A stretch of 64,000 nt of DNA from Cohaesibacter marisflavi (lineage in GTDB: Bacteria > Pseudomonadota > Alphaproteobacteria > Rhizobiales > Cohaesibacteraceae): contig NZ_FOVR01000002.1 in assembly GCF_900115225.1 (NCBI RefSeq), forward strand, positions 248,001 through 312,000. Reading direction: 5' to 3'. A model generated the notes under the pieces. It made no database searches, had not been told where the DNA came from, and worked only from the letters and a program-made list of their open reading frames with translations. Both the position numbers and the translations under genes were made by a program. Position 1 is the first letter of the stretch; each line of letters opens with the position of its first letter. Below, one piece after another: positions 14,166 to 54,110 of the stretch.

Positions 14166-14178
14166 CTATTTACCATAT

Positions 14179-33707: not shown

Positions 33708-33745
33708 TGGCTTCTCTTTGCAGGAGCGGAAAAAGGCAATATCCG

Positions 33746-35026: not shown

Positions 35027-35029
35027 GGG

Positions 35030-35560: not shown

Positions 35561-35738
35561 GACAGCCTCGCTTTTTGTTCATTCCTTCAAGACGGGGGAC
35601 GAAAGAATGATGCGGTTTATCGTTGAAGTGCGCAAGCCTTGGTGACCATCTCGCAGGTGAAAGTGTACGCTTGAGATTGGGCCGCGTTGGGCGAACTGCC
35701 GCAAGGGGGCTTGCGACAGTCCTGATGCATGCTATTGA

Positions 35739-36719: not shown

Positions 36720-36748
36720 TTGTTCCTCCCAGTCATTGTCGATGGGGA

Positions 36749-37453: not shown

Positions 37454-37469
37454 AAGCTATCCTCCAATT

Positions 37470-37510
37470 GCTAACCACCATACCGGCATACCACCATACT
37501 TGTCAACCGG
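37470..37510. promoter_or_regulatory. Candidate operator between gntR and uxuA
   Basis: On the minus strand the repeated half-sites GGTATG-CC-GGTATGGTGG and AGTATGGTGG occur (plus strand ACCACCATAC twice, around 37475 and 37490). They are placed to control the divergent regulator/TRAP and uxuA transcripts. The spacing and symmetry are not clear enough to name the site. Confidence 0.4.
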
Positions 37511-37675
37511 CTTTGGCTGTGATAAAGATTGATATAACGCGGCAACAGAGCGCAGAGGCATTGGACCATATGCGCATTGCGGCCGGATAAATTGCACCGG
37601 AGGAACCGGTCATGCACCCTTGTCCTTGCGAATTCGGGCAGTCGGGCGCCAAGAACAACATACGGGAGACGGCAA

Positions 37676-38875
37676 ATGCGTCAGACGTGGCGGTGGTTCG
37701 GTCCTCAGGATCGAGTTGGGATTAAGGACATGCTTCAGGCCGGTGTGGAAGGGGTCGTCAGCGCCCTGCATCACATTCCAACCGGCGATATCTGGAGCCC
37801 CGAAGAAATTGCAGCGCGCCAACAGCTCATCGCTTGCAAGAAGGATGGCACACCTTCCGGTCTGGCATGGGAAGTTGTCGAAAGCCTGCCTGTTTCTGAA
37901 GACATCAAGCAGCAGATGGGCAACTGGCGCACCCATATCGAGAATTACAAGCAAAGCATGCAGCATCTGGCCGACGCCGGCATCAAGATCATTTGCTATA
38001 ATTTCATGCCGGTGCTGGATTGGACGCGAACGGATCTGACCTATCGTCTGCCGAGCGGCGCCACCTGCATGCGGTTCGATCTGATCGACTTCGCAGCCTT
38101 TGATCTGTTCATTCTGGAACGGGCCGGAGCGCACGAAGACTTCCCCGACGATGTGATCGAAGAAGCCAAAGGTCGCTTCGAGCGCCTTGATGATGCCGGG
38201 CGCGAGCTGTTGGTCGGATCAATCATTTATGGCCTACCCGGAGATGCCGAGGCACCTTCCATGGCAAATGTGCGGGCCAACCTTGCCCAGTATGACAATA
38301 TCTCCCAGGAGCAACTACGCAGCCATTTTGTTGCCTTTCTGGAAGAAGTGGCTCCAGTGGCCCAAACCCTTGGCATGCGCCTTTGCTGCCACCCGGATGA
38401 TCCTCCGTTCGGACTTCTGGGCCTGCCACGCATCATGTCCACTGAGGCGGACTACAAATATATGATGGATGCGGTCGATATTCCTGCCAATGGCATCACG
38501 CTTTGCTCCGGCTCACTGGGGGCGCGCCCGGATAATGATCTGCCCGGCATGATGAAACGCCTTGGTGATCGGGTTCATTTCCTGCATTTGCGCAACGTGG
38601 CTCTGGAAAGTGACGCGATCAAGGGCTCCTTTTATGAATCGGAACATCTGGGCGGACATGTGAACATGGTTGCCCTCATGCAAGCGGCGCTGGATGAAGA
38701 GGCAAGGCGCAAGGTGGAAGGCCGAGATGACTGGTCGATCCCCATGCGGCCTGACCATGGTCTCGATATTCTCGACGACCAGAAGCGCAAGGCCCAGCCG
38801 GGCTATCCTGCCATTGGCCGCTTGAAGGGGCTGGCCGAACTGCGCGGGATCATGGCAGCCCTTTTGTCTCTTTGA
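37676..38875 (+). CDS. uxuA: Mannonate dehydratase (UxuA)
   Basis: A 399-residue TIM-barrel enzyme that dehydrates D-mannonate to 2-keto-3-deoxygluconate. UxuA marks are MRQTWRWFGPQDRVGI at the start, ALHHIPTGDIW near 25, YNFMPVLDWTRTDL near 110, and the metal-binding segments RLCCHPDDPPFGLLGLPRIM near 240, FLHLRNV near 302 and the terminal MRPDHG near 358. The frame is open for 33 codons upstream, but ATG 37676 has GGGAGAC and begins the true N-terminus. Length fits E. coli UxuA (about 394). KDG kinase and aldolase genes are not in the window, so the pathway must be completed elsewhere. Confidence 0.93.
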   Translation: MRQTWRWFGPQDRVGIKDMLQAGVEGVVSALHHIPTGDIWSPEEIAARQQLIACKKDGTPSGLAWEVVESLPVSEDIKQQMGNWRTHIENYKQSMQHLADAGIKIICYNFMPVLDWTRTDLTYRLPSGATCMRFDLIDFAAFDLFILERAGAHEDFPDDVIEEAKGRFERLDDAGRELLVGSIIYGLPGDAEAPSMANVRANLAQYDNISQEQLRSHFVAFLEEVAPVAQTLGMRLCCHPDDPPFGLLGLPRIMSTEADYKYMMDAVDIPANGITLCSGSLGARPDNDLPGMMKRLGDRVHFLHLRNVALESDAIKGSFYESEHLGGHVNMVALMQAALDEEARRKVEGRDDWSIPMRPDHGLDILDDQKRKAQPGYPAIGRLKGLAELRGIMAALLSL

Positions 38876-39081: not shown

Positions 39082-40263
39082 GTGGTGACACCCGTCGAAA
39101 ATATTGAGCATCTCGAGATCGAGCATCTAGAGGTCGGATTTGATATTCCAGCCCGACCAGGCATGAAGGAAGCCGATATTCAAACCCCGTGTCTTGTTCT
39201 TGATCTTGATGCATTGGAACGGAATATTGCCAAGATGGGGGCCTATATCAAGGCCCATGGCATGCGCCACCGCTTGCATGGCAAGATGCATAAATCAGTC
39301 GATATTGCATTGCTGCAAATGGAAATGGGCGGCGCTTGTGGCGTCTGTTGCCAGAAGGTTTCCGAGGCGGAAGTCTTTGCCCGTGGCGGTATTTCCGATG
39401 TTCTCATCTCCAATCAGGTGCGCGATCCACACAAGATAGATCGCCTTGCCAGCTTGCCCAAACTGGGGGCGCGCACGATTGTGTGTGTTGATGCTCTGGA
39501 AAATATTGACGAGCTTTCCGAAGCCGCCCGCGCCCATGAAACAGAAATCGAATGTCTGGTCGAGGTCGATTGCGGGGCAGGGCGCTGCGGTGTCTCAACT
39601 CCTCAGGAAGTCCTGATCTTGGCCAAGGCCATTAACAAGGCTTATGGACTTAAATTCTCCGGTCTGCAAGCCTATCAGGGATCCATGCAGCATCTGCCTG
39701 CTTATGCCGACCGCAAGGCCAAGATCGATGCTGCCGTTCTTCTGGTCAAGGACTGTCTGGCGCTGCTGGACGAAGAAGGGCTGGGCTGTGATATTGTCGG
39801 TGGCGGCGGAACTGGCTCCTACTATTTCGAATCCACTTCCGGTGTCTACAACGAATTGCAATGCGGCTCCTATGCCTTCATGGATGCGGACTACGGGCGC
39901 ATTCTTGATGAAGATGGCAAGCGCATCGATGAGGACGAATGGGAGAATGCCCTGTTCCTGCTGACATCCGTGATGAGCCATGTGAAGGCAGACCGTGCCA
40001 TCGTGGACGCGGGCCTTAAGGTACAGTCTGTCGATAGCGGCCTACCGGTCGTTTATGGGCGGGATGATGTGACCTATCTGGAATGCTCTGATGAACATGG
40101 AACCATCGCCGACCCTGACGGTGTTCTAAAAATCAACGAAAAGCTGCGCCTTGTGCCGGGTCACTGCGATCCGACCTGCAATATTCATGACTATTATGTG
40201 GGCGTGCGCAAAGGGGTGGTCGAATGCCTCTGGCCGGTGTCTGCCCGCGGAAAGGCCTATTAG
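39082..40263 (+). CDS. D-threonine aldolase-fold PLP enzyme, probable 3-hydroxy-D-aspartate / beta-hydroxyaspartate aldolase
   Basis: A 393-residue fold-type III (alanine-racemase-like) PLP enzyme. The PLP lysine lies in RHRLHGKMHKSVDIA (near residue 62), the phosphate-binding segment is GGGGTGSYYFES (near 238), and the C-terminal metal ligands His and Cys are in LRLVPGHCDPTCNIHDYYVG (near 358). EVDCGAGRCGV and GSYAFMDADYGRILDEDG also match, from memory, the BhcC beta-hydroxyaspartate aldolases of Paracoccus, which split the substrate into glycine and glyoxylate. The other bhc genes are absent here. GTG start with GAAGGA. It is encoded convergently with the sigma-54 activator; its relation to that regulon is unknown. 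D-serine dehydratase is a less likely alternative. Confidence 0.8.
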   Translation: MVTPVENIEHLEIEHLEVGFDIPARPGMKEADIQTPCLVLDLDALERNIAKMGAYIKAHGMRHRLHGKMHKSVDIALLQMEMGGACGVCCQKVSEAEVFARGGISDVLISNQVRDPHKIDRLASLPKLGARTIVCVDALENIDELSEAARAHETEIECLVEVDCGAGRCGVSTPQEVLILAKAINKAYGLKFSGLQAYQGSMQHLPAYADRKAKIDAAVLLVKDCLALLDEEGLGCDIVGGGGTGSYYFESTSGVYNELQCGSYAFMDADYGRILDEDGKRIDEDEWENALFLLTSVMSHVKADRAIVDAGLKVQSVDSGLPVVYGRDDVTYLECSDEHGTIADPDGVLKINEKLRLVPGHCDPTCNIHDYYVGVRKGVVECLWPVSARGKAY

Positions 40264-40302: not shown

Positions 40303-40323
40303 GGCCCCATGCCTAATGGGGCA
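40303..40323. terminator. Hairpin between convergent genes
   Basis: GCCCCAT / ATGGGGC with the loop GCCTA spans the stop codon of the sigma-54 activator gene. There is no strong T-run. Confidence 0.45.
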
Positions 40324-42226
40324 CGATGCCTTGTGGTTTGCTGTCCTTGCCAAGCCAGCGCTTGACGGTGTTGCGGTCTATCGAGAGACGCTGCGCCGTC
40401 TTGCTGATATTGTAATTCTCCTGCTTGAAAATCTGGTTCACCTTCGCGGCAATCATCTCGTCAAGGGTCGAGCCCTCCAACAGACTTTCGGATGCCGTGC
40501 CATCGCTCGATATCCGCCCCATATGATGGGTTTCCGAAGAGAGGAGCGGCGTGTCGAAATCATGCAGGCTTTGCAGCGTGGCAAACTTCTCGGCGCAATT
40601 CTCAAGCTCGCGTACATTGCCCGGCCAGCTATGGTGTCGCAATTCCTTTAGCAATTTGCCAGACAGCGGCGGCACCGGAATAGATTGCAAATGGCAGGCC
40701 TTTTCCAGAAAACGGGTGAAGAGCAGCTCCGGATCTCCCTTCCGGTCGCGTAGAGGGGGAATTTTAAGATCCAGCACATTGAGGCGATAGAACAAATCGG
40801 CCCGCAACCGCCCCGCCTTGATGGCTTCAAGCGGGTTCTTGTTGGTTGCGGCAATGATGCGCACCTTGATCGGGATGACCTTATTGTCGCCGATTCGCAT
40901 GATTTCGCCCGTTTGCAAAGCGCGCAACAGCTTGGCCTGCAGAAAGACATCCATTTCGGTCAATTCATCAAGGAACAATGTGCCTTCATGGGCCAGCTCG
41001 AACAGGCCGATTTTGCCGGCACGGGACGCTCCGGTGAAGGCCCCCGGCGCATAACCGAACAACTCGCTTTCCAGCAGGTTGCCGGGCAAGGCGGCGCAGT
41101 TCACGGCAACAAAGGGGCCGTTTGAAAGCGCCCCCGCATTATGGATCGACTGGGCAAACAGCTCCTTGCCGGTCCCCGTTTCACCCACAATCATGATGTT
41201 GCTGGCTGTGCGGCTATAAAGCTGAGCCATCTCCACCAAACGCTTCATCTCCTGACAATGATAGATGATATGCTCGAAGGTATATTTGGCGTAAAAGCCG
41301 CTTTCGCTCAGTTTCTTGCGGATCAGGTTGCCTGCATCCTGAATTTTCTGCACCGGCTGGAAGAGAATGACCGAGGCATTGTCGGAAAGCTTCTCCGATG
41401 AGACGGGGATATGATCCAAAGCCAGCTTGTCGTCATGACAGGTTACGATCATGTTTCGGGCATGGGCTTTCTTGCGGAAGGCCTTGCTGAGTTCGGGCGT
41501 ATTGAAGAAACCGGCAATATTGGATCCAAGCAGATCATCGCGCTCCTGTCCCAATATCGTGCAGCCCTGTCTGTTGATCTCGTCGATCTGGCCTTCACTA
41601 TTGACAAGAACAGCGCCATCCCGCGTGCAGTCGAGCACGGCCTCGAGCTTCTTCTCAGCCAGAAAATAGCGGTTCAGATTTTTATAGACGAGCATGGCGC
41701 GCTCAAAGGCATCGACGATGGTTTCCATGCTGGATTCGATCAGATAGGCGTTGAGCCCCTTGGATTTGGCCCACTGGAAGGCAACGGCGTCGCCGATCAC
41801 CACATCCGGATTCCAATGCACCAGCGTATCCATCCGCTCCTGAAAGCTCTCCTTCTCGCGCAATTCGAACGAGCGATAATTGCGCGATAGAATGGTGCAA
41901 ATGGGGGAAACAAGATTGATGAGGGGGGCAAAGCCAACAATTCCCACCCGGCTCGTCTCTGTTGTTTCCTTATAGACAAAGGCAAGTGTGCGCTGCACCG
42001 AGGCCTCCACCTCGATCACCTCGACATCAAGCGAACGGCGAATGAGGCGCGCGGTGCCCCCGCGGCTGATGATGATCTTGGCTCCGTCATCAAGCGCGCG
42101 CTTGGCTGCTTTCACGCCCTGATGCAAATCGCCCAGATAGGCCTTGGCCGGGTAATTGGATGTATCGATGATGCTCTGCGCCTTGATGCGGATCTGCTCA
42201 AAAGGCGCGATAAACGCAATAACCAT
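40313..42226 (-). CDS. PrpR-type sigma-54-dependent transcriptional activator
   Basis: A 637-residue activator. Residues 1-185 form a PrpR_N-like sensor domain ([19 protein letters not shown] and [18 protein letters not shown]). Residues 190-290 form a PAS domain. Residues 320-545 are the AAA+ core with Walker A GETGTGKE (348-355), the sigma-54 contact loop GAFTGA (395-400), the Walker B segment [12 protein letters not shown] and the arginine-finger region [11 protein letters not shown]. The C-terminus has a Fis-type helix-turn-helix ([19 protein letters not shown]). ATG 42226 with GGGGGAG is chosen over an upstream start without family similarity. It is divergent from the dpp-type operon, whose -24/-12 promoter it should activate. 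Family precedent is PrpR sensing 2-methylcitrate; the effector here is unknown. Confidence 0.9.
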
Positions 42227-42292
42227 GACCTGATCTCCCCCTCTGGTCGCAAGCAAGTATGCGGGCGGAGGGGCGAAATTGCAACGAACTGC

Positions 42293-42342
42293 TGATGCGA
42301 TATGCATCAACAATTAGTGCAAACCACCACAGCTACGCATCA
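42293..42342. promoter_or_regulatory. Candidate upstream activator sequence
   Basis: The perfect dyad TGATGC-N5-GCATCA (42293-42309) is accompanied by a further half-site GCATCA at 42337-42342. It is centred about 96 bp upstream of the -24 element, the usual distance for sigma-54 activators, and lies between the activator gene and its presumed target operon. Confidence 0.6.
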
Positions 42343-42396
42343 GGCTATCTTCTTAGTTTCAGAAAAAAGAAACTTATTTTCAATCGGTTAGGCGAG

Positions 42397-42412
42397 TGGC
42401 ACGCGAATTGCA
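42397..42412 (+). promoter_or_regulatory. Sigma-54 (-24/-12) promoter
   Basis: TGGCACG-CGAA-TTGCA matches the RpoN consensus TGGCACG-N4-TTGCW at every defined position, with the correct GG-to-GC spacing. Transcription should begin near 42423-42425, leaving about 57 bp before the binding-protein gene. Confidence 0.85.
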
Positions 42413-42480
42413 AAAATTTCGTTAAGGCGCACCAAGAACGTCATTGCTTTTACGAAGTTGAAATGAGAGGAGACAACTAC

Positions 42481-44100
42481 ATGAAAAAGGATCTTTTCAA
42501 AGTCCTTTTGCTCGGGCTTACAGTGCTCGGGCTGACACCGCTACAAAGCGGCCAGGCATCGGCCGAAGATGGTCAGGTGCTCAATATTGCCCACCCCGTT
42601 TTACAGCAGAACTGGTCGCCCCTTCAGGGAGGAGGACACGCGGCACGCTGGCAATCTCTTAGCTGGGCTGCCCCAATGTATTTCGACAAGGACGGCAAGC
42701 TGACCCCTTACGTTCTTTCAAGTGTTGAGTCCGATGACAGCTATGTCAATTGGACCCTGCATGTCAATCCCGATGCAGTCTGGTCTGACGGCTCCAAGAT
42801 CACGGCCGAAGATGTGGTCGGCACATGGAATCTGTCCGCCCGTCCGGCAACCAAGCACGCCCGCGTTAACCTGTTCCTTGGTGGCGTTGAAGGCTTCAAC
42901 GACGTGGTCGTCGGCAAAGCAAAAGACATGACGGGATTGTCCGTCACCGATGACGCAACGGTGAGCGTCAAGCTCGCAAGCGCCGACCCGATCTTTGACC
43001 AGAAAATCGCAACGGCGCTGATCGCACCGGTGAAGATTTCTCAGGCTGAAGACGAGAATGGCAATGAAAAGTCCGATTGGTGGATGCCTCAGAATGGCGT
43101 CGTTGTCTCCGGTCCTTTCATGCCGGAAACCATGGACCTTGACCAGGGTGTTCTGACACTCGTACCGAACCCGAACTTTTTTGGTCCGAAACCAAAGCTT
43201 GAAAAAATCGTCCTGACCACTGTGGCTGATGCCAGCACAGCAACCCTGATGCTCAAACGCGGTACCATGGATGCTCATACCGAGCTCATCACGCCGACGA
43301 TCATTCAGGACCTTGGACCTGACTTCCTTGGTGGCCCTGCGCTTGCCAAAGGCCAGCAGTTCTGGATCAATATCAAAAAGCCACCAATGGACGATATTAA
43401 CGTCCGAAAAGCTCTGATCATGTCCATCAATCCTGATGAACTCGCTCTTGCAGCTTTCCCCGATGGCCCCTTCACCGCTGCATCCCAGATCCTTAACAAG
43501 GTTCCCGGTGTGGATCCGGACTTCAAGAAATATCCATATGATCCCGAAGCTGCCAAGGCTGCCCTTGCTGCCTCAAAATACAAAGATGCCAACCGCCTGC
43601 CAAAAATCATGTTTGTCGGTATTTCTACCCCGACCCATGAAGCCGCTGCCCAGTATATCGCTGAACAATGGCGCAAAACACTTGGCATTCAGGGCATTGA
43701 AATGAAACCTGCCATCGAAACCTATTCCGGCCCTGACCAGAAGAGCGTTCAGATCTTCCGTGACGATGTCGGCACGCGGGTTCCTGATGCGGTTTCCTAC
43801 CTGATGGGCTCGATCTATTCGAAGTCCGGTAACGCCCGCAACAAGCTGGGTAGTTACAAAAACGACAAGATTGATGCCCTACTCGAAGAAGCATCCGTCA
43901 AGGGTGTGAAAGACCCGGACCGCATCAAACTTGCACAGGAAGCACAGCGTCTCTTCCGTGAAGACTGGACCTACATTCCTTACTACTACGACGTGATGTC
44001 GAAATGGGCCATGCCATGGGTCATGAATTTCGACAAGAACGATGACTGGCAGGTCATCGAGCCTTGGAATGTAACCATCGACGAAGCAAAACGTCCGTAA
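42481..44100 (+). CDS. Oligopeptide/dipeptide-type ABC substrate-binding protein (SBP_bac_5)
   Basis: A 539-residue periplasmic protein with a signal peptide (about residues 1-26, SGQASA-ED). Family 5 marks are the TLHVNPDAVWSDGSKITAEDVVGTW segment (split, near 95), NPNFFGPKPKLEKIV near 225, and DDINVRKALIMSINPDELA near 305. The family binds peptides, nickel, opines or oligosaccharides, so the name does not fix the ligand. The sialidase-like, acid-sugar kinase and lyase genes downstream suggest a glycoside or sugar-acid conjugate. ATG 42481 follows GAGGAG. It is the first gene of the sigma-54-controlled operon. Confidence 0.88.
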   Translation: MKKDLFKVLLLGLTVLGLTPLQSGQASAEDGQVLNIAHPVLQQNWSPLQGGGHAARWQSLSWAAPMYFDKDGKLTPYVLSSVESDDSYVNWTLHVNPDAVWSDGSKITAEDVVGTWNLSARPATKHARVNLFLGGVEGFNDVVVGKAKDMTGLSVTDDATVSVKLASADPIFDQKIATALIAPVKISQAEDENGNEKSDWWMPQNGVVVSGPFMPETMDLDQGVLTLVPNPNFFGPKPKLEKIVLTTVADASTATLMLKRGTMDAHTELITPTIIQDLGPDFLGGPALAKGQQFWINIKKPPMDDINVRKALIMSINPDELALAAFPDGPFTAASQILNKVPGVDPDFKKYPYDPEAAKAALAASKYKDANRLPKIMFVGISTPTHEAAAQYIAEQWRKTLGIQGIEMKPAIETYSGPDQKSVQIFRDDVGTRVPDAVSYLMGSIYSKSGNARNKLGSYKNDKIDALLEEASVKGVKDPDRIKLAQEAQRLFREDWTYIPYYYDVMSKWAMPWVMNFDKNDDWQVIEPWNVTIDEAKRP

Positions 44101-44175
44101 GGACGGCGAACCTGGACGGGTCGTGGTGGTCTCACTTCCCGTCCTTTTTTCCCGAATTCGCAAGGATGACTTGAT

Positions 44176-45132
44176 ATGGGACGCTACATCTTATTCCGAC
44201 TTCTGAAGTGGATTCCCTCGGTTTTTATTCTTCTTCTGTTAATCTACGCTCTCGTGTTCTTCGGAGCAGGCGACCCGATCAAGCTTATCTTCCTGCAGGC
44301 TCCGGGGGATGTGGCGTATGATCCGGACAGAGTTGAAGCCATAAGGGATGCCGCTGGCCTGAACCGGCCGTTTCTGGTTCAGTTCATGGACTATCTGGGC
44401 AATATCGCGAACGGCAACTTTGGCAACTCGCTGGTTTCCGGTCGCTCGGTCAACTCGATGATCAGTGCAGCGCTTCCGGTGACCCTAAAAATCGGACTCA
44501 CCGCGATTTTCCTGCTCTCCATCGTTGGCATCATTCTGGGCGTGATCGCCGCGCTCAATCAGAACAAGCTTCTTGATAACCTGATCGTGGGCTTTGCCCT
44601 CATCGTTTGGGGCATTCCGGTTTTTGTTGCCGGTCCGCTGATCATCGTCTTTCTCGTGCTGGTTATGGATATGGACGTGCCCTATGGCTGGAGTGGCCTG
44701 CTCAGTTTCAAAGTGATTGTCCCCCTTCTGGTTCTGGGGCTCAACCCCATGGCGCTGATCATTCGACAGGCGCGCGCCGGTGTGCTTGAGGTGCTCAGTG
44801 AAGACTATGTCCGCACAGCCCGCGCCAAGGGCATTCCGAATTATCAGGTCGTGGTCAAGCATATCATGCGCCCCGTGCTGACGCCTGTTGTCAGTCAGAT
44901 CGGCCTTCTGGTGATTGCCACGCTCAACAACTCTATTCTCATCGAAAAGGTTTTCGGGCTGCCCGGCCTTGGGCGCCTCACCGAAACCGCAATCAAAACC
45001 TCGGACTATCCGGTCATTCTCGCGATCGTGTTGATCTTCTCGACGGTGGTCATGGCCTCCAACCTGCTGGTTGATATTTCCTATCCGCTGCTTGACCCCC
45101 GCGCGGCAGCCAAAAAGACAGGAGACGAATAA
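44176..45132 (+). CDS. ABC transporter permease (DppB/OppB type)
   Basis: A 318-residue inner-membrane permease with six predicted helices. The N-terminal RYILFRLLKWIPSVFILLLLIY is the DppB hallmark, and VLEVLSEDYVRTARAKGIPNYQVVVKH (split, near 215) is the EAA loop that contacts the ATPases. It ends overlapping the start codon of the next permease (TAATG), so the pair is translationally coupled. It pairs with DppC in the permease heterodimer. Confidence 0.9.
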   Translation: MGRYILFRLLKWIPSVFILLLLIYALVFFGAGDPIKLIFLQAPGDVAYDPDRVEAIRDAAGLNRPFLVQFMDYLGNIANGNFGNSLVSGRSVNSMISAALPVTLKIGLTAIFLLSIVGIILGVIAALNQNKLLDNLIVGFALIVWGIPVFVAGPLIIVFLVLVMDMDVPYGWSGLLSFKVIVPLLVLGLNPMALIIRQARAGVLEVLSEDYVRTARAKGIPNYQVVVKHIMRPVLTPVVSQIGLLVIATLNNSILIEKVFGLPGLGRLTETAIKTSDYPVILAIVLIFSTVVMASNLLVDISYPLLDPRAAAKKTGDE

Positions 45133-46085
45133 TGACGGACAATACGCTTGAGCTGCAACAGGAAGAGAAGCAGTTCAGTCTGGCCAAGGATGCCTTTGAC
45201 CGGCTGATAGCCAACAAGCTCGCCGTGATCGGCATGCTGCTGGTGGTGTTCCTGTTCTTCATCGCCATTTTCGGCCCCTATATCACGCCTTACGACTTCT
45301 TGTCGCAGGATTTGCAGGCCCGCAATCAGGCGCCAAGCTGGGCACACTGGTTCGGCACCGATGATCTGGGGCGCGACATCATGAGCCGCGTGATCTATGG
45401 TGCAAGAACTGCCGTTATCGTGGCCTTCTCAACCACCTTTCTCAGCCTGATTATCGGTATTTTCATGGGCTCGCTGGGTGGCTATTTTGGCGGCAAGGTG
45501 GATGCTTTCATCGTCTGGCTTATCGACATCACTATGTCGGTGCCCTCTCTGCTGCTGGTCATCGTCATCAACGTTTCGATGAAGCCACGGCTGGTCAACT
45601 GGATGGATGAGCAATTCCTGCTCACGGGTAACTCTTTCTATCGCAATACCATTCTGGTGGACTTCGTGCTGGTGTTCGGCTCTCTGGCCCTCATCAAATG
45701 GCCCAAGGCGGCCCGCATCATTCGCGGCCAGATCATGTCGGTGCGCAACAAGAACTATGTGCTCGCCGCCGAGGCCATCGGGGTGCCGACGCCCAAGATC
45801 GTCTGGAAATATGTCATTCCGAACTCAATCGGTCCGATCATCGTCTATATTAGTGCCGCTCTTGGGGAGGCGATGGTGTTTGAATCGTCCTTCTCCTTCC
45901 TGGGTGTTGGCGTGCGTCCTCCAATCCCCAGCTGGGGCAACATGATCTCGGATGGATTGCGCGTCTGGCAGCTCTATCCGCACATTCTCGCAGCGCCTGC
46001 CGCAGTGCTTGCGTTGGTCACCATCGCCTTCAGTTTCCTTGGCGACGGCCTCAACGATGCGCTCAACCCGCGGCAATGGAAATAG
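45132..46085 (+). CDS. ABC transporter permease (DppC/OppC type)
   Basis: A 317-residue permease with a cytoplasmic N-terminal arm and six helices. Typical motifs are FGTDDLGRDIMSRVIYGARTA near 77 and the EAA loop VRNKNYVLAAEAIGVPTPKIVWKYVIPN (split, near 205). There is an extended loop at about residues 145-180 (MKPRLVNWMDEQFLLTGNSFYRNT) that is longer than in standard DppC and resembles permeases of sugar- or opine-type family 5 systems. Its start overlaps the dppB-like stop. Confidence 0.9.
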   Translation: MTDNTLELQQEEKQFSLAKDAFDRLIANKLAVIGMLLVVFLFFIAIFGPYITPYDFLSQDLQARNQAPSWAHWFGTDDLGRDIMSRVIYGARTAVIVAFSTTFLSLIIGIFMGSLGGYFGGKVDAFIVWLIDITMSVPSLLLVIVINVSMKPRLVNWMDEQFLLTGNSFYRNTILVDFVLVFGSLALIKWPKAARIIRGQIMSVRNKNYVLAAEAIGVPTPKIVWKYVIPNSIGPIIVYISAALGEAMVFESSFSFLGVGVRPPIPSWGNMISDGLRVWQLYPHILAAPAAVLALVTIAFSFLGDGLNDALNPRQWK

Positions 46086-46116
46086 AGACACAACGAACAG
46101 CTAAAGGGAGGGCGCT

Positions 46117-47132
<1,016 letters not shown>

Positions 47133-47136
<4 letters not shown>

Positions 47137-48158
47137 CGCGTGCAGCCAAGCAGCCACTGGTCAAGGTGAAAAACCTTGTCAAATATTTCCCCATCAAGAT
47201 CGGCGCTTTCGGAAGTGAGAAAGCGGTCGTGCATGCCATCGATGACGTCAGTTTCGATATATTCAGGGGCGAGACCCTGGGGCTCGTAGGCGAGTCAGGA
47301 TGCGGCAAATCGACGACTGGTTTCACGATCCTGCAGATCTATCGCTCCACGTCCGGAAGCGTCGAATTTGAAGGGGTTGATCTGGCCTCCCTGTCCAAAC
47401 AGGAGCTGCGCGCCATGCGCAAGCGGGCCCAGATTGTCTTTCAGGATCCCTATTCAACGCTCAATCCGCGCATGACCATCGGTGAAGCGCTGGCTGAGCC
47501 GATGAAGGTCCATAAAATCTGCCCTGACAATGAGATTCAAGGCCGAATTGCCCAGCTTATTCGCGATGTCGGGCTCAATCCCAATGTCGCCAATCGCTAT
47601 CCGCATGAATTCTCCGGCGGCCAGCGTCAGAGGATCTGCATTGCCCGTGCTCTTGCGTGCAATCCGGAATTCATCGTCTGTGACGAACCTATTTCCGCGC
47701 TTGATGTGTCCATTCAGGCCCAGATCATCAACCTCTTGATGGATATTCAGGAGAAATACAATCTCACCTATCTCTTCATCGCCCATGATCTGGCCGTTGT
47801 ACGCCATATCAGCGACAGGATTGCAGTGATGTATCTCGGCAAGATCATGGAGATTGCCGAAAAGAAGGATTTGTTCAAGAGGCCATTGCATCCCTACACC
47901 AAGGCGCTGCTGTCGGCCGTGCCGGAAGCAGATCCGGATATCGAACGCCAACGCCAGCGGATCATTCTCAAGGGGGATGTTTCCAACGCCATTGATCCGC
48001 CAAGCGGCTGTCGGTTCCACCCGCGTTGTGCCTACGCAACAGATGCCTGTGCGCAATCCGTACCGGAACTGGAGGATTATGGCGATGGACATCAGGTCGC
48101 CTGCCTGCGTCTGGACGAGATTGCCATGGAAGAAAAACTGGAAACTGAAGACGCCTGA
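47133..48158 (+). CDS. ABC transporter ATP-binding protein (DppF/OppF type)
   Basis: A 341-residue ATPase, partner of DppD. Walker A GESGCGKSTTG is near residue 50, the Q-loop VFQDPYSTLNPRM near 99, the signature FSGGQRQRICIARAL near 160, and Walker B IVCDEPISALDVS near 182. The C-terminal domain has CRFHPRCAYATDAC near 293. It overlaps the dppD-like gene (ATGA type). A 182-bp gap with no visible promoter or terminator separates it from the sialidase-like gene. Confidence 0.92.
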
Positions 48159-48340
48159 CCTTGGCTCTTGAGCAATCCCGATGGCCCCATTTCGCAGGAC
48201 CACACTGACAACGCGGGCGGCAGACCAACCGCTTTCGCCCGTGCGTACTACCCGTTTATGCCTATTCGCCACCTATTATGCCGAGAATCTTGCCGGGCAT
48301 CGCATGTGGCGCCGATCATAAAGCAAAGCCAGGTAACGCC

Positions 48341-49414
48341 ATGAAAATAATTGAAAGCAGAGCCATTCCGACCCCATGCCTGAGCAACCATGCATCCAAT
48401 CTTCTGAAGCTGGAGAGTGGCGATCTTCTGTGCACCTGGTTCGGTGGCAGCATGGAGGGCTCATCCGATATCTCCATCTATTTGTCCCGTTTTGATCATA
48501 CTGAAAAGACATGGAGCGATGCGGTCAAGATGAGCGATGATGCCAACCGCTCCGAGCAAAATCCGGCCCTTTTCCGCCATCCTTCCGGACAGATCTGGCT
48601 GCTCTATACGGCTCAACTCAAGACAGATCAGGGAACCGCCATTGTGCGCTTGCGCCGCTCGGATGATGAGGGGCAGAGCTGGGCCCCGATTGAAACATTG
48701 TTTGCGCGGGAAGGCACCTTCATTCGCCATCCGCCAGTGGTCAACCCCGATGGCAAGCTTCTGCTGCCGATCTGGTTTTCCAGCATGAAAAACGCCTTTG
48801 GAGATGACCGTTCACTGGTGCAGATTTCCGATGATGGCGGTATGAGTTGGCGCCTTGAAGGCGTGCCCAGAAGCGAGGGCTGCGTGCATATGAATATCCA
48901 GCCCAGTTGCAAGGTGGCTTTCTATCGCAGCCGCCGGGCGGACAATATCTTCCGGTCTGTTTCAGATGATGGCGGCCTGACATGGTCTGCGCCGGAACCA
49001 ACGCCATTGCCCAACAACAATTCGTCCATTCAGGCTGCCGAGCTGTCCGATGGCCGGTTGCTTATCATCTACAACCATATCAGCGCTGCTGGTCGCGATT
49101 GCGAAAGTGCGGTGCCGCCCTGGGTGCAGGATAAGGAAGCCTTTCTGGCTGAATGCGACGTAACCGAAAACAGTGCCATCTGGGGCGTGCCGCGCAATCC
49201 GCTCATCATTGCCAGCTCGACCGATCTGGGAAAAAGCTGGAAAGAGGAGCTGGTCGTCGAAGAAGACGCTCACCTTCTGTCGGCTCATGACAAGAAGGGC
49301 GCCTTCCGGGGGGATTATTCCTATCCCTCGATCATCGAGACATCCGATGGGCGCCTCCATATCAGCTATTCCTACCTGCGCGACTATATCAAACACGTCA
49401 CGCTGAGCATGTGA
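48341..49414 (+). CDS. BNR/sialidase-like (PF13088-type) protein, no signal peptide
   Basis: A 357-residue six-bladed beta-propeller protein. Four Asp-box motifs (SxDxGxTW) are seen: SDDEGQSW, SDDGGMSW, SDDGGLTW and STDLGKSW. The family segments SNHASNLLKLESGDLLCTWFGG near 12, NNNSSIQAAELSDGRLLIIYNH near 230, and the C-terminal YSYPSIIETSDGRLHISYSYLRDYIKHV (split) place it in the BNR_2 group, whose substrates are mostly unknown. There is no export signal, so it probably acts on an imported compound in the cytoplasm; a lactonase or isomerase-like function cannot be excluded. ATG 48341 removes a 21-residue extension; its ribosome-binding site is weak. Confidence 0.8.
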   Translation: MKIIESRAIPTPCLSNHASNLLKLESGDLLCTWFGGSMEGSSDISIYLSRFDHTEKTWSDAVKMSDDANRSEQNPALFRHPSGQIWLLYTAQLKTDQGTAIVRLRRSDDEGQSWAPIETLFAREGTFIRHPPVVNPDGKLLLPIWFSSMKNAFGDDRSLVQISDDGGMSWRLEGVPRSEGCVHMNIQPSCKVAFYRSRRADNIFRSVSDDGGLTWSAPEPTPLPNNNSSIQAAELSDGRLLIIYNHISAAGRDCESAVPPWVQDKEAFLAECDVTENSAIWGVPRNPLIIASSTDLGKSWKEELVVEEDAHLLSAHDKKGAFRGDYSYPSIIETSDGRLHISYSYLRDYIKHVTLSM

Positions 49415-49511
49415 GTTTGGCTGGAAAAGGGGAATGGCAACATAGTTGAAGAAGGCCTGAAGAAGAGTTGAAGAAGACAAGAACGGGCTTGGAACATTGT
49501 GGGGGGAAAGG

Positions 49512-50783
49512 GTGAAACAGGATCAGAAACTGGCGATCATCGCAGATGATTTCACCGGCGCAGGGGATTCCGGGGTGCATTTCTCGCGGCTTGGCAAGCA
49601 GATCAAGTTGCTCCTTCATTTCCCGTCCCTGCATGACGAAGGACTGCTCGAAGGGAACGTCTCCATCAATTCCGAAACCCGATTTCTGGCTCCGGATGCG
49701 GCAGCGGCCACGGTGGCCCATGTGATCGGCATTTGCCGCCAGAAGGGATATGAGCGCTTTTACAAGAAGATCGATTCCACCATGCGCGGCAATCCCGGCG
49801 CCGAAATCGAGGCCGCCCTTGAGGCAACCGGTAAAGCCGCCGCGCTCATTTGCACCGCCATGCCCGAAACCGGACGCACCTGCCGCGAGGGAACCATCTT
49901 TTTGTCCGGCGTGCCTCTGCATGAGACAGATATTGGCAAAGACCCTTTCCACCCGATCTCGACCTCGAACATCGCCTGCATGCTCGGCGAACAGTCACGC
50001 CTTGTCACCGCTGGACTGACGATTGCCGATTGCGAAGCCGGAGAGGAGGCGCTGGTCTCCTCCATCAAGGCGCATATCATAGCCGGAGCCCGGCTGATCA
50101 TTGCCGATGCGGTCAATGAAACCCATTTGGCAACGCTGGCCAGAGCTGCATTGCAGGCCGACTGTTTGCCCGTGGGAGCAGGGGGCTTTGCCAGAGCGCT
50201 GGCGGCTTCCGAGGCAACACCAAAAAGCAAATCCACCAGACGGCAGGGTACTATTCTGGACGGGCCTCTGCTGGCCATCGTCGGCAGCCTTGCCAAGCCA
50301 TCGCTGCGACAGGCGGAGGTCGCTGAAAAGCTGGGAGACTACCAATCCATCATAGTCCCTCCCGATGCCAAGCCGCAGGACGTGGGCGGTCTCTGCTGCG
50401 CACAGCTTGAGACGAACGGAGGCAGATCTGGCGACATCCTTCTGCGCATGGATAACAGCAGCGTCGCCGCGCGGGTAAGCAAAGAAGAAGGCGCTCGCAT
50501 CGCCGCTCTTGTCGGGCAGGCTGCGCTTGATATTTGCCAGAGCCAGCATTGCAAAACCGTGTTCAGCACGGGGGGAGAAACCGCCATTTCTGTTGCCTCC
50601 GCGCTCGGCATTGAGGCCATTGATCTTGCCGACGAGCTACTGCCGGGCGTCGTACTCGGGGCCTGCCGGTCCGACAAGGTGGATGTGAAATGGTTCATCT
50701 CCAAGGCCGGTGGCTTTGGCGATGATGCCGTACTGCTCGATATTCAGGCTCAAACGCGCAACCCCATCAGAAAAGCTCAATGA
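49512..50783 (+). CDS. Four-carbon acid-sugar kinase family protein (DUF1537)
   Basis: A 423-residue kinase. The N-terminal substrate domain starts with IIADDFTGAGDSGVHFSRLGK and has the family motif FYKKIDSTMRGNPGAEIEAAL (split, near 85). The C-terminal nucleotide domain has LAIVGSLAKPSLRQAE near 252, the ATP-binding region FSTGGETAISVASALGIEAIDL near 350 and a VKWFISKAGGFGDD ending. DUF1537 enzymes phosphorylate threonate, erythronate or 3-oxo-tetronates (OtnK/DtnK), usually beside PdxA2 or class II aldolase genes; neither is here. Instead it is followed directly by a DHDPS-family gene, so its substrate may be different. GTG 49512 is used; TTG 49497 is an alternative. Confidence 0.85.
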   Translation: MKQDQKLAIIADDFTGAGDSGVHFSRLGKQIKLLLHFPSLHDEGLLEGNVSINSETRFLAPDAAAATVAHVIGICRQKGYERFYKKIDSTMRGNPGAEIEAALEATGKAAALICTAMPETGRTCREGTIFLSGVPLHETDIGKDPFHPISTSNIACMLGEQSRLVTAGLTIADCEAGEEALVSSIKAHIIAGARLIIADAVNETHLATLARAALQADCLPVGAGGFARALAASEATPKSKSTRRQGTILDGPLLAIVGSLAKPSLRQAEVAEKLGDYQSIIVPPDAKPQDVGGLCCAQLETNGGRSGDILLRMDNSSVAARVSKEEGARIAALVGQAALDICQSQHCKTVFSTGGETAISVASALGIEAIDLADELLPGVVLGACRSDKVDVKWFISKAGGFGDDAVLLDIQAQTRNPIRKAQ

Positions 50784-50784
50784 G

Positions 50785-51732
50785 ATGGAAGACCTTCGCA
50801 TAGCAAAGCAGGACATGCCGCATGTGGCACCAGAGACAACCGGACAGCCCGCGAGGGCCGAGGCTTACGTTGCCATTATTACCTGTTTCAACCGCGATGA
50901 CACGATCAACTACTCTGCGGTGAGAAATCAGGTCCGGCGGCAGATCAGCTTCGGCAACAATATTCTCGTGGGGGACACGCAAGGGGATTTTACCTGCCTG
51001 ACCCATGCGGAGAAAGTGCGCCTTTGCGCCGAAATCGTTGAAGAAGCAGACGGGCGCGTCAAGGTCTTGGCCAATATCGGGATGCCCTCCACCTACCAGT
51101 CCATTCTGGTGGGCAAGGATATCTCCGGACTCGGAGTGGATGGTGCAACCGTGCTCGCCCCCTATTTTGCCGATTGCCCGGATGAGGATGTGTTCCTGCA
51201 TTACAGCAAGGTTGCCGACAGCTTGCAGATGCCGATTTATCTTTACAATGCGCCTGCCATCACCATGCGGCCTCTTTCGGCAGAGGTGGTTGGGCAACTG
51301 GCGTCCCACAGCAACATCAAGGGCATCAAGGACAATAGCACCGATGGAGCCCGAATGCGGGCCTATCTGGATATCGCAGCGGACAATGCGGATTTTGTGC
51401 ATTATGTGGGCACGGATTCCCTCATCTGTGAGGCGCTTTCCCATGGGGCAGCAGGATGTATGTCTGATCTGGGGAATATCCTGCCCCGAACGCTCAATAA
51501 TCTCTGTCTTACCTTTGCCAATGGCAGCAGCAAGGAGGCACTGAAATGGCAATCCCTGCTGTCTGAACTGCGCGCCGATCTGCTGGCATTGGGGCCCATG
51601 GCCCTGTGGGTCAAACAACTTCTCTATTTGATGGATAACAGCGTCGGTCTCGGGCGCCAGCCCTTTCCGCGCCCCAACAGCGCACAGGAAGAAGCCCTGT
51701 GCGCCATCGTCGAGAAATATCAGATCGTGTGA
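50785..51732 (+). CDS. DHDPS/N-acetylneuraminate-lyase-family aldolase or dehydratase
   Basis: A 315-residue Schiff-base TIM-barrel enzyme. Lys182 (GIKDNSTDG) forms the Schiff base with a 2-keto acid and Tyr154 (IYLYNAP) is the conserved general acid; the carboxylate loop is VGDTQGDFT near 63. The GDTQGDF loop replaces the usual GTTGE, so the substrate differs from dihydrodipicolinate synthase and from the DHDPS-family protein encoded at 7361. In this operon it probably cleaves or dehydrates a 2-keto sugar acid, possibly a nonulosonate-like or keto-deoxy acid. The start codon lies 1 bp after the kinase stop, so the two are coupled. It is the last gene of the operon. Confidence 0.82.
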   Translation: MEDLRIAKQDMPHVAPETTGQPARAEAYVAIITCFNRDDTINYSAVRNQVRRQISFGNNILVGDTQGDFTCLTHAEKVRLCAEIVEEADGRVKVLANIGMPSTYQSILVGKDISGLGVDGATVLAPYFADCPDEDVFLHYSKVADSLQMPIYLYNAPAITMRPLSAEVVGQLASHSNIKGIKDNSTDGARMRAYLDIAADNADFVHYVGTDSLICEALSHGAAGCMSDLGNILPRTLNNLCLTFANGSSKEALKWQSLLSELRADLLALGPMALWVKQLLYLMDNSVGLGRQPFPRPNSAQEEALCAIVEKYQIV

Positions 51733-51764: not shown

Positions 51765-53711
51765 TTAAACGCGTCCCCGGCCGATGCGGCTGACCAGCAC
51801 GGCCATCAAGCGCTGATAGAGATCCGCCCCCAGCACATCATCCTCAATGCCATAATCAACGGACGGGTTGTCGTTGATCTCGATGATGCACGGCCCTTTC
51901 GGTGTTTCCTTGATGTCCACTCCGTAAAAGCCGTTGCCGATTAACCGGGTGCCGCGAATGGCCGTTTCGACCACGTCAACAGGCACGGCTGAGATGGGCA
52001 TCGTTTCCGAGTCGCCTGACTGGATGGTGCCGTCCTTTTCATATTCGTAGATCTTCCAGTTGCCGCTCACCATGTAATATTTGCAGGCATAGAGCGCTTC
52101 CCCGTCCAGCACCCCGATCCGCCAGTCAAAATCCGTCGGCATGAATTCCTGAATCATCAGAAGATCCGTTTTGCGGAACAGCGATTTGCTGAGATCGTTC
52201 AGCTCATCGCGGCTCGACACCTTGTGTACGCCCTTGGAGAAACAGCCATCGGGAATTTTCAGAATGCCGGGAAACTCGAACGCGTCGACGAGCGCCTTTA
52301 GACGCGGGCGGTCAAAGATCGTTGTCTTGGGCGTCAGGATCCTGTTCGACTTCAAAAGTTCCGCCAGATAGATCTTGTTCGTGCAACACAGGATCGAATG
52401 TGGATCATCGATAACGGGCATCCCCTCACGCTGCGCCCGCTTGGCAAAGCGATAGGTGTGATGGTTGAGAGCCGTTGTCTCACGAATGAATAGGGCATCA
52501 AATTCAAGCAGGCGTCCGAAATCCTTCGCGGTGATGAATTCAGCGCGTGCGTCCACGGTTTCAGCGGCAGCTGCGAATGCCTCCAACGCCTTGGCATCGC
52601 TCGGAGGGCTCTCTTCTTCCGGATTGGCAAGAATGGCCACGACGGCGGAAGGCAGCTTGCGGATTGACGGTTTGGGTAGACTGCCTTTGAGAAAGGCGCT
52701 AAGGGCCGACAGGAAGCGCGGCTTTTCATCTTCGCCCAGCTTGTGAATGGCAACCGCTTCGATTTCCTTGATCCTGAATTTCGCGTCTTCTTGCAAGGTG
52801 ATGCGAATGGCAGGGCAGCGGAACAGGTCGAAAGCCGTTTTGCCAATGTCGCGAAAGCGCCGTTCGGAGGTGCGGCCGAAATAGATGTCTATGGAAGCGG
52901 GGAAGCTCTTGTCCTGCATGCTGCCAAGCATTTGATCCAGGCGCAGGAGGGCCTGTCGATGGATGCGCTTCCAGTTGATGTCGAGCAGTGCATCGGCTTC
53001 TGGCAGGCAGCGTTCCTTGCGGGCTTCGGCCAGCAGACTGCAATAATAGCCAAGGGATAATGGTTCATAGGAGCGCGACAGGTTGATGATGCGTCGCCCC
53101 GGAACCCCATGTTCGAGCGCCAGATATTGGCGCACAGTCATGACCAGCGAGCCGCTAGGCGGTGTTTCCAGATCCTTGAGCTGATCCACCAGAATGATCG
53201 GCAGGCGGGTGCGGTTGGCCGGTTTGGAGCCATGGGGCAGATGCTCAAGCACGCGCAAAAGGCGAAGCCCGTCTGCGCCATCCTCATAATAGCCCGGCAA
53301 GGCCTCTTCCGGCACGAAGCCATAGCGCTGGTAAAGACTGATCGCCTTGCTGTTATCGGCGCGAACCTCCAGCGACAGTCGGTCGCATTCCAGCTCTTTG
53401 GCAATAGCCTCGGCACCCCCCAGAAGCTGGGAGCCAATGCCAAGCCCGCGAGCCTCCGGCTCCACGGCAATCGAATAGAGACGCGCGACAGATGTGCCCT
53501 GTCGGGTGAGGATCAAGGCATAGCCGAACAGCCTGTCCTGCTCGCCAATTGCCACAAGAAGGCGGGCTGTGTCTGTCTTCATGAAAGAAGAAAAGGAACG
53601 GCGACTGATCTGGTCGCTATCAAAACAGCGGTCTTCTAGCGTCACAAGAGCGGAAAGGTCGTCCATATTGGCCGGACGAATGAGGACTTGGGAAAGAGGA
53701 TGCGATGGCAT
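51765..53711 (-). CDS. GNAT acetyltransferase - RLAN - RimK-like ATP-grasp fusion
   Basis: A 648-residue three-domain protein. Residues 10-160 are a GNAT acetyltransferase (acyl-CoA loop EARGLGIGSQLL, then YQRYGFVPEE). Residues 170-330 match the RLAN domain that precedes some RimK-type ligases (QYLALEHGVPGRRIINLSRSY, LDINWKR). Residues 400-640 are an ATP-grasp ligase: KTTIFDRP, FPGILKIPDGCFSKGVHKV, LLMIQEFMPTDFDWRIGVLDG and the Mg2+-binding CIIEINDNPSVDYGIEDD. Such a protein could join amino acids and acylate the product. It resembles in layout, but is not, the N-acetylglutaminylglutamine synthetase. It is monocistronic and convergent with the preceding operon. GTG 53720 is an alternative start. 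Confidence 0.84.
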   Translation of the reverse strand: MPSHPLSQVLIRPANMDDLSALVTLEDRCFDSDQISRRSFSSFMKTDTARLLVAIGEQDRLFGYALILTRQGTSVARLYSIAVEPEARGLGIGSQLLGGAEAIAKELECDRLSLEVRADNSKAISLYQRYGFVPEEALPGYYEDGADGLRLLRVLEHLPHGSKPANRTRLPIILVDQLKDLETPPSGSLVMTVRQYLALEHGVPGRRIINLSRSYEPLSLGYYCSLLAEARKERCLPEADALLDINWKRIHRQALLRLDQMLGSMQDKSFPASIDIYFGRTSERRFRDIGKTAFDLFRCPAIRITLQEDAKFRIKEIEAVAIHKLGEDEKPRFLSALSAFLKGSLPKPSIRKLPSAVVAILANPEEESPPSDAKALEAFAAAAETVDARAEFITAKDFGRLLEFDALFIRETTALNHHTYRFAKRAQREGMPVIDDPHSILCCTNKIYLAELLKSNRILTPKTTIFDRPRLKALVDAFEFPGILKIPDGCFSKGVHKVSSRDELNDLSKSLFRKTDLLMIQEFMPTDFDWRIGVLDGEALYACKYYMVSGNWKIYEYEKDGTIQSGDSETMPISAVPVDVVETAIRGTRLIGNGFYGVDIKETPKGPCIIEINDNPSVDYGIEDDVLGADLYQRLMAVLVSRIGRGRV

Positions 53712-54110
53712 GGGATGCACTCACGATCACGGTTGAGACAGGCTCCCATTTCCGCAAGAGTCCCAGATAGAGAGCGATGGTCCTATATACTGTTGCTTGA
53801 GGTTTGAATATCGAAAAATGCAAGTTTTAGGACGAAAATGTAAGAGGATATGTGCGAGGATATATTGGTCATTTCTGTCGAAATTGTTTCTGCCAATTAC
53901 GAATGGCAAAACGGATGTGTATGTCGCTACGGTGACGTAATCGGCGCTGTCTGACTATGTTCGCGCCGCAAGAGTAACCCTACTGTTTTTCTTTAAAACA
54001 CAAGGGTTTTGGTTACGGGTTTATAACCGCTTTAAGAATTTCGATTGGCCTGAGTCGTACCTTAATTCCGGCTACACGGGTGCTATGCAGAAATTGCAAG
54101 CTCTTCTGCA
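53712..54110. other. Intergenic region upstream of the GNAT-ATP-grasp and marR genes
   Basis: About 400 bp between divergent genes. It is AT-richer than its surroundings, and I see no coding frame with a ribosome-binding site. It must contain the promoter of the GNAT-ATP-grasp gene. Several T/A-rich runs exist near 53975-54030, but no dyad stands out. Confidence 0.45.

What the first reader, a model, noticed from the sequence alone, without database searches (positions are those of the whole stretch)
42226..51732. Uncharacterised sigma-54-controlled catabolic operon: oligopeptide-type importer, cytoplasmic sialidase-like protein, DUF1537 kinase and DHDPS-family lyase
Eight co-directional genes behind one RpoN promoter combine parts not found together in a pathway I know. 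A family 5 ABC importer is followed by a BNR/sialidase-like protein without signal peptide, an acid-sugar kinase lacking its usual PdxA2 or class II aldolase partner, and a DHDPS/NAL-family enzyme with a GDTQGDF substrate loop. A simple reading is: import of a conjugated sugar acid, intracellular hydrolysis or ring opening, phosphorylation, and retro-aldol cleavage. The visible facts are gene order, motifs and the promoter; the substrate and reaction order are inference.
Basis: partly seen in the sequence, partly recalled or inferred. Interest (0 to 1): 0.85.

Follow-up and report, generated by a model that had tools for sequence, protein, structure and literature searches.

The report
Operon for eating sialic-acid-like plant sugar

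Summary
The operon is real. Eight genes lie behind a perfect -24/-12 (RpoN) site next to a divergent PrpR-type activator; the unit is intact in 11 of 20 family genomes (own included). It is a lineage version of a wider set: sialidase-fold protein (COG4692/BNR), DHDPS/NAL-type lyase, DUF1537 kinase, Fe-alcohol dehydrogenase and PdxA2, with varying transporters. In Cohaesibacter, PdxA2 and Fe-ADH sit in a second cluster, found in all 11 genomes that carry the operon. In six of six Enterobacterales sets scanned, kinase and PdxA meet NCBI's D-threonate models; the window's kinase and own-genome PdxAs do not. Best reading: a 2-keto-3-deoxy heptulosarate (Dha, of pectin RG-II and green-algal scales) is cleaved to pyruvate and D-threuronate, reduced to D-threonate, phosphorylated and converted to DHAP and CO2. 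Stereochemistry fits; no activity is shown. The sialidase-like protein has an invariant His where sialidases have their catalytic Glu, so its reaction is the weakest step. The set is in print (ExPEC E. coli, S. meliloti) without a substrate, as far as the passages I saw show.

The parts
40313..42226 (-). PrpR-type sigma-54 activator (PrpR_N + PAS + AAA), divergent; start taken at the ATG of MVIAF
   Evidence: next to the operon in all 11 loci
42397..42412 (+). -24/-12 promoter TGGCACGCGAATTGCA
   Evidence: only perfect match in the window; kept in relatives
42481..44100 (+). family-5 solute-binding protein
   Evidence: SBP_bac_5 2.9e-54; nearest solved relatives are OppA-type proteins
44176..45132 (+). 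OppB/DppB-type permease
45132..46085 (+). OppC/DppC-type permease
46117..47136 (+). OppD/DppD-type ATPase
47133..48158 (+). OppF/DppF-type ATPase
48341..49414 (+). BNR_2 (COG4692-type) sialidase-fold protein, no visible signal peptide; catalytic Glu position is His183
   Evidence: BNR_2 1.1e-66; model pLDDT 92; Foldseek to GH33 sialidases, TM 0.66-0.74 in the 50 listed
49512..50783 (+). DUF1537 kinase, best model D-threonate kinase but below its cut-off (234 of 450 bits); start codon uncertain (49497 or 49512)
50785..51732 (+). DHDPS/NAL-family lyase, GDTQGDF loop, GIKD motif (Schiff-base Lys by family knowledge)
   Evidence: tree

Best explanation
The operon is the uptake and entry part of a catabolic pathway for a 2-keto-3-deoxy sugar diacid of the sialic-acid/Kdo type, most likely 3-deoxy-D-lyxo-2-heptulosarate (Dha), free or as a small glycoside. 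Proposed order: (1) the Dpp-type ABC importer brings it in (inferred). (2) The BNR protein frees or prepares it in the cytoplasm, as a ketosidase or another ring-level reaction (inferred, weakest step). (3) The DHDPS/NAL-type lyase cleaves C3-C4 to pyruvate and D-threuronate (inferred from family). (4) An Fe-ADH reduces the aldehyde to D-threonate (inferred; gene in a second cluster here, in the set elsewhere). (5) The DUF1537 kinase makes 4-phospho-D-threonate and PdxA2 makes DHAP + CO2 (activity known for the families, by homology here). PrpR-type activator and RpoN switch it on. Overall Dha -> pyruvate + DHAP + CO2 at the cost of one ATP, redox neutral.
For: In an evenly drawn sample of 199 genomes of the order, of the 16 BNR loci outside the genus (one, L140, is the same sequence as L045) 14 have the lyase, 13 kinase, 12 Fe-ADH, 14 PdxA, 12 OppB; of 18 control stretches 1 has a lyase and none the other three. 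Kinase-PdxA single reading frames in 11 loci, two of them with one partner incomplete. Second cluster in the own genome with PdxA, Fe-ADH, a sister lyase, kinase and TctABC; close PdxA (>=80%) in 11 of 11 genomes with the operon and 1 of 9 without, Fe-ADH (>=80%) 11 of 11 and 0 of 9. D-threonate kinase and D-threonate-4-P dehydrogenase models met by both genes in 6 of 6 Enterobacterales loci scanned, of 24 that have both genes. By Fischer bookkeeping Dha gives D-threonate and not its isomers. A YhcH/NanQ-family gene (DUF386) in 30 of 80 loci, as in sialic acid operons (NanQ match also in PMC12928451). TctA and a CitMHS-type carrier replace the importer in some loci. The Dha hydrolase GH143 is a sialidase-like propeller (PMC6811678 passage). 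Dha occurs in prasinophyte scales, the Tetraselmis theca and RG-II (passages).
Against: I found no demonstrated Dha activity for any enzyme of the set. The BNR family has His in place of the sialidase catalytic Glu in 34 of 34 sequences and no Arg at the FRIP-type N-terminal position in 80 of 80 readable sequences, so it is no ordinary ketosidase; it also occurs beside carriers that would import free acids. The window kinase scores 234 of the 450 bits of the D-threonate model; kinases and PdxAs scanned from Lucifera, Bacillus, Priestia, Azospirillum and Burkholderia, and the Rhizobium kinase, are also below. For the two own-genome PdxAs the best model is generic PdxA. PdxA2 and Fe-ADH are not in the window. 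The second cluster has its own lyase and kinase, so the two clusters may serve different isomers; a further kinase-PdxA pair lies on C12. Co-occurrence within one genus is confounded by shared ancestry; with looser cut-offs it is 11 of 11 against 3 of 9. 8 of 80 BNR loci have none of the four partners near. A C4 epimer of Dha would give the same products. The solved GH143 chain (5mqr) is not among the 50 structural matches listed.
Confidence: 0.45

Rival explanations
1. Same lower pathway (lyase, Fe-ADH, DUF1537, PdxA2 via a C4 acid), but the substrate is not Dha: another 2-keto-3-deoxy acid, or a C4 epimer, or a conjugate in which the four-carbon acid is one half.
For: All gene-set evidence fits equally; window kinase is below the D-threonate cut-off; transporter types vary.
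Against: D-threonate models met in 6 of 6 Enterobacterales sets scanned; Dha is the one natural heptulosarate that I know of (recall) giving D-threonate.
Confidence: 0.3
2. One reading: conjugated sugar acid imported, hydrolysed by the sialidase-like protein, phosphorylated by the kinase, then cleaved by the lyase.
For: Operon content without PdxA2 or Fe-ADH.
Against: PdxA and Fe-ADH belong to the set in relatives and are probably supplied in trans here; single reading frames join kinase to PdxA, and none joins kinase to lyase among the ORFs over 520 aa examined; NAL/DHDPS lyases mostly take unphosphorylated ulosonates (general knowledge).
Confidence: 0.1
3. A sialic acid (Neu5Ac or Kdn) utilisation operon.
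For: Sialidase fold, NAL-family lyase, YhcH/NanQ-type genes in relatives; annotators name the BNR protein exo-alpha-sialidase.
Against: Kinase and PdxA of the sets scanned best match four-carbon or hydroxythreonine acid enzymes; lyase scores far below the NAL cut-offs; catalytic Glu replaced; I saw no NanE/NanK in the neighbourhoods read, but did not search for them by profile.
Confidence: 0.05
4. In Cohaesibacter the operon has drifted to a new substrate: its lyase and kinase evolve fast beside a nearly fixed importer.
For: Importer proteins 90-100% identical to the window's in the ten other genomes, kinase 50-95%, lyase 58-98%; loop GDTQGDF in the window and two near relatives against GGTNGEF in Silvania; second lyase and kinase in the same genome.
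Against: Fast change may be relaxed constraint or gene conversion; the importer's ligand appears constant; the lyase is sister to the second cluster's lyase.
Confidence: 0.1

Closest known systems
nan operon (sialidase, NanA lyase, NanQ/YhcH, transporter; composition recalled)
   Same: sialidase-fold protein, NAL/DHDPS-type lyase, YhcH-family gene (in 30 of 80 loci) and transporter together
   Different: Fe-ADH, DUF1537 kinase and PdxA in place of the ManNAc branch, which I did not see; sialidase catalytic Glu replaced by His; no YhcH gene in the window operon
D-threonate pathway DtnK/PdxA2 (Zhang 2016: paper not held; known from passages of PMC10971088 and PMC10079672, and recall)
   Same: Kinase and PdxA of six Enterobacterales sets meet these equivalog models
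   Different: Here preceded by lyase, Fe-ADH and BNR protein; window kinase below cut-off
ExPEC BEN2908 region GR6 and S. meliloti cluster (PMC12928451, passages)
   Same: CitT, EbgC, COG4692, DapA, Fe-ADH, OtnK/DtnK, PdxA, GlpR in one region
   Different: The passages assign no substrate and read the kinase/PdxA pair as linked to pyridoxal phosphate; Cohaesibacter has a Dpp importer and PrpR activator, with PdxA and Fe-ADH elsewhere
GH143 Dha hydrolase of Bacteroides thetaiotaomicron (PMC6811678 passage; that 5mqr is this enzyme is recalled)
   Same: Sialidase-like propeller; proposed common sugar Dha; weak profile match of chain 5mqr, E 0.063
   Different: Five-bladed with Tyr-Glu pair (passage); ours is GH33-like in fold with Tyr and His; not secreted; 5mqr not among the 50 listed structural matches
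GudL DapA-like 5-KDG aldolase (PMC11775122, passages)
   Same: DapA-family lyase near an ABC importer for a sugar diacid
   Different: GudL is predicted to give tartronate semialdehyde (C3); no DUF1537/PdxA2 named in the passages; my protein was not compared with GudL

Membership tests
GH33 sialidase | sialidase beta-propeller fold | tested here: met
   Foldseek E 1.8e-16 for the best, TM 0.66-0.74 in the 50 listed, nearly all sialidases; blades not counted
GH33 sialidase | catalytic Glu of the Tyr-Glu pair | tested here: not met
   His183 aligns with the Glu of sialidase B in ATAEAQ (number Glu541 recalled); His in 34 of 34
GH33 sialidase | Arg triad | tested here: inconclusive
   Arg196 aligns with one triad Arg and is invariant; no Arg at the FRIP-type position in 80 of 80 readable sequences of 81; third Arg not aligned
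D-threonate kinase (NF047819) | score over 450 bits | tested here: not met
   window 234 bits; 6 of 6 Enterobacterales set members over it, 489-616; 6 of 6 others below
D-threonate-4-P dehydrogenase (NF002891) | score over 583 bits | tested here: not met
   own-genome PdxA 290.7 and 297.3 bits; Enterobacterales set members 594-682
N-acetylneuraminate lyase | NAL model cut-offs | tested here: not met
   87.8 of 382 and 113.4 of 281 bits
DHDPS/NAL superfamily | PF00701 match and Schiff-base Lys motif | tested here: met
   2.1e-46; GIKD motif
BNR-lyase-kinase-FeADH-PdxA set | all five genes clustered | tested here: not met
   three of five in the window operon; PdxA and Fe-ADH on another contig
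Dha catabolic pathway | activity on Dha | not testable with these tools
   needs enzyme assay

The most novel reading that the evidence does not exclude
This is a so far undescribed bacterial route for Dha, a rare sugar of RG-II that also occurs in marine prasinophyte scales. A COG4692 propeller with a Tyr/His site prepares it, a new Dha lyase makes pyruvate and D-threuronate, and D-threonate, for which I know of no natural source (recall), is its intermediate.
Probability: 0.38. Interest if true: 0.75.

Novelty: new variant of a known kind. Interest (0 to 1): 0.6.

Why it matters
Many plant symbionts, plant-associated enterobacteria and some E. coli carry this set under misleading names (exo-alpha-sialidase, PdxA, DapA); 297 plasmid records alone hold a relative of the BNR protein. 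A substrate would correct those names, say what becomes of Dha once pectin RG-II or algal scales are opened, and give the D-threonate kinases a natural role. The prediction is specific enough (D-threuronate, D-threonate) to be tested with a handful of purified enzymes.

Tried and rejected
Considered and set aside: sialic acid operon (no fit of kinase and PdxA); Kdo as substrate (retro-aldol gives D-arabinose, no use for a DtnK/PdxA2 pair; reasoning only); hexarate/GudL-type substrate (C3 product; PMC11775122 passages); bhcC (39082-40263) as a member: it is not beside the operon in G008 and G009, so the unit ends at prpR. SSS-BNR and PdxA-FeADH fusions suspected from ORF lengths were not confirmed; only kinase-PdxA was. 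The apparent loss of the kinase in G014 was my ORF picker's fault; it is full length. In one search the N-terminal column was mostly gaps because the rows were trimmed, so the Arg question was counted again on untrimmed frames. Rfam and tRNA scans were empty. Print searches for the pathway; they cover open-licence PMC papers only and mostly gave capped listings, so absence there is weak. Of the hits, 'DHA aldolase' in PMC8208507 means dihydroxyacetone, and PMC10311216 only names DHA hydrolases as an enzyme class (passages); PMC6353982 only lists Dha as an RG-II sugar (passage). Catalytic residues could not be placed on the model because its coordinates were not in the Python box; the mapping rests on HMM alignments.
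Full report
What is there. The window lies in or next to Cohaesibacter: the named near relative is C. haloalkalitolerans (L043), and searched the 20 genomes held for the family. Between 42397 and 51732 eight genes follow a perfect -24/-12 site: a family-5 solute-binding protein, two permeases, two ATPases, a BNR_2 protein, a DUF1537 kinase and a DHDPS-family enzyme. A PrpR-type sigma-54 activator (40313-42226) reads the other way. The same unit, activator to lyase, is present in 11 of the 20 genomes, own included (the G014 kinase, missed by my ORF picker, is full length). In G008 and G009 the outer neighbours differ, which sets the limits of the unit. The promoter is kept in all 11, in 8 to the pattern and in 3 with one change. 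Against the window, the proteins of the ten other genomes are 90-100% identical for the importer, 71-96% for the BNR protein, 58-98% for the lyase and 50-95% for the kinase.

The wider set. With profiles built from these neighbourhoods, 67 of 80 loci have the lyase, 67 the kinase, 66 an Fe-ADH and 65 a PdxA; 60 have all four and 8 have none. The profiles were built from the same loci, so an independent sample was taken. Of 199 genomes of the order, drawn evenly, 20 carry the BNR protein (4 of them of the window's genus). Around the 16 others the lyase is found in 14, the kinase in 13, Fe-ADH in 12, PdxA in 14, a Dpp-type permease in 12 and a GntR regulator in 12; one of the 16, L140, is the same sequence as L045, and one, L132, has none of the four. 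In 18 control stretches (8 from genomes outside the genus, 10 from inside) the lyase is found once and kinase, Fe-ADH and PdxA never. In the class the BNR protein is rare: by single-protein search 6 of 385 genomes have a match at E 1e-20, own included, and only two of the others are below 1e-60. In 11 loci kinase and PdxA are one reading frame; in L057 the kinase part and in L109 the PdxA part is incomplete. R. johnstonii 3841 shows the set as annotated: GntR, kinase, Dpp importer, lyase, exo-alpha-sialidase, Fe-ADH, PdxA. The importer changes between lineages: of 67 loci of 20 kb or more, 42 have an SSS carrier, 8 a Dpp-type permease, 5 TctA, 3 a carrier typed as CitMHS in the one member scanned, and 9 none of these. 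Among 72,556 plasmid records 297 hold a relative, chiefly Rhizobium 128, Sinorhizobium 78 and Pantoea 27.

The missing genes. The window operon has no PdxA or Fe-ADH. The same genome holds a second cluster (L035, G000:C18): kinase, GntR-type regulator, PdxA, 2-hydroxyacid dehydrogenase, lyase, TctABC and Fe-ADH, without BNR protein (TctB and TctC by eye). PdxA orthologs of at least 80% identity occur in 11 of 11 genomes with the operon and 1 of 9 without; Fe-ADH orthologs of at least 80% in 11 of 11 and 0 of 9 (Fisher p 7e-5 and 6e-6). With looser cut-offs (64% and 74%) the counts are 11 of 11 and 3 of 9 for both (p 0.002). Shared ancestry inflates these values, and some of the nine are incomplete assemblies. 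Another kinase-PdxA pair lies on C12 (L037). In the lyase tree the window clade is sister to the lyases of the TctA-linked clusters (the joint group has support 100/99) and groups next with Pleomorphomonas, Marinobacterium and then the Enterobacterales set members; Rhizobium, Burkholderia and Bacillus lyases are separate branches, and several long branches make the deep order unsure. Inference: the two clusters share one chemistry and the window operon uses the other cluster's reductase and PdxA.

What it does. In six of six Enterobacterales loci that I chose to scan, of 24 with both genes among 28, the kinase passes NCBI's D-threonate kinase cut-off and the PdxA passes the D-threonate-4-phosphate dehydrogenase cut-off. 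The members scanned outside that group do not, nor does the window kinase (234 of 450 bits), although D-threonate kinase is its best model; the two own-genome PdxAs match generic PdxA best. [quoted passage not shown] What upstream compound gives D-threonate through a pyruvate lyase and an aldehyde reductase? It would be a seven-carbon 2-keto-3-deoxy diacid. Fischer bookkeeping shows that Dha, D-lyxo, yields D-threuronate and, after reduction, D-threonate and no other isomer. C4 is lost as a stereocentre in the cleavage, so its configuration is not constrained. Dha is described as a seven-carbon sialic acid analogue; its known hydrolase (GH143) is a sialidase-like propeller (PMC6811678 passage). 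It occurs in RG-II (PMC12168206 passages) and in scales and thecae of mostly marine green algae (PMC10762512 passages), which fits a marine host and plant-associated relatives. A YhcH/YiaL-family gene (DUF386 in the one member scanned), the family of NanQ, is in 30 of 80 loci, 27 of them Enterobacterales, usually right behind the BNR gene. The window operon has none.

The weak step. The BNR model is confident (mean pLDDT 92) and its best structural matches are GH33 sialidases. But the residue aligned to their catalytic Glu is His183 in 34 of 34 sequences, while Arg196, Arg285 and Tyr328 are invariant. The N-terminal Arg of the sialidase FRIP motif (recalled) is not there in 80 of 80 readable sequences. 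The protein also stands beside carriers that would import free acids. It may be a ketosidase with a changed mechanism, or a lactonase, anomerase or similar. I give hydrolysis of a Dha glycoside about even odds.

What is known. A 2026 paper lists the same set in ExPEC E. coli BEN2908 (CitT, EbgC, COG4692, DapA, Fe-ADH, OtnK, PdxA, GlpR) and notes the S. meliloti cluster; the passages that I saw assign no substrate (PMC12928451). Ten searches of the open library listed no paper that I recognised as a Dha catabolic pathway (three doubtful hits checked by passages). Subscription papers are not covered, and the DUF1537 paper of 2016 was not held.

Verdict. Operon confirmed; reading partly supported; pathway logic (lyase, reductase, kinase, PdxA through a C4 acid) about 0.75 likely, Dha as natural substrate about 0.45 (my estimates). 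It is a new arrangement of known enzyme families with a specific, testable substrate.

Noticed in passing
window 39082-40263: A BhcC equivalog (3-hydroxy-D-aspartate aldolase, 730 bits against cut-off 690) between uxuA and prpR; its usual bhc partners were not looked for. It lies beside the operon in 9 of 11 genomes, own included (window).
   Followed up: partly
window 32138-38875: A hexuronate cluster: UxuA, GntR/FCD regulator, and by eye a UxuB-like reductase and TRAP parts, just upstream.
   Followed up: no
window 51765-53720: A 651-aa fusion of GNAT acetyltransferase, RLAN and RimK-like ATP-grasp domains, beside the operon in 9 of 11 genomes.
   Followed up: no
L035 (G000:C18) 8054-17678: A second DUF1537/lyase/PdxA/Fe-ADH cluster with a Tct-type transporter and a 2-hydroxyacid dehydrogenase but no BNR protein.
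   Followed up: partly
L045 13296-14066, L047 3741-4562: A fumarylacetoacetate hydrolase-family gene (PF01557, scanned for L045 only) near the set in Pleomorphomonas and a soil MAG.
   Followed up: no
L059 12519-16407: Hydantoinase/oxoprolinase A and B genes directly behind the set in Symbiopectobacterium; the same sequence clusters stand behind it in Serratia marcescens L084.
   Followed up: no
L024 864-1787: In G008 the gene next to prpR carries a BrxC/BrxD ATPase match (PF10923); a same-cluster gene lies there in G009 (L025).
   Followed up: no
plasmid records: Many public records name the BNR protein exo-alpha-sialidase although the family has His at the catalytic Glu position: a probable mass misannotation.
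   Followed up: partly
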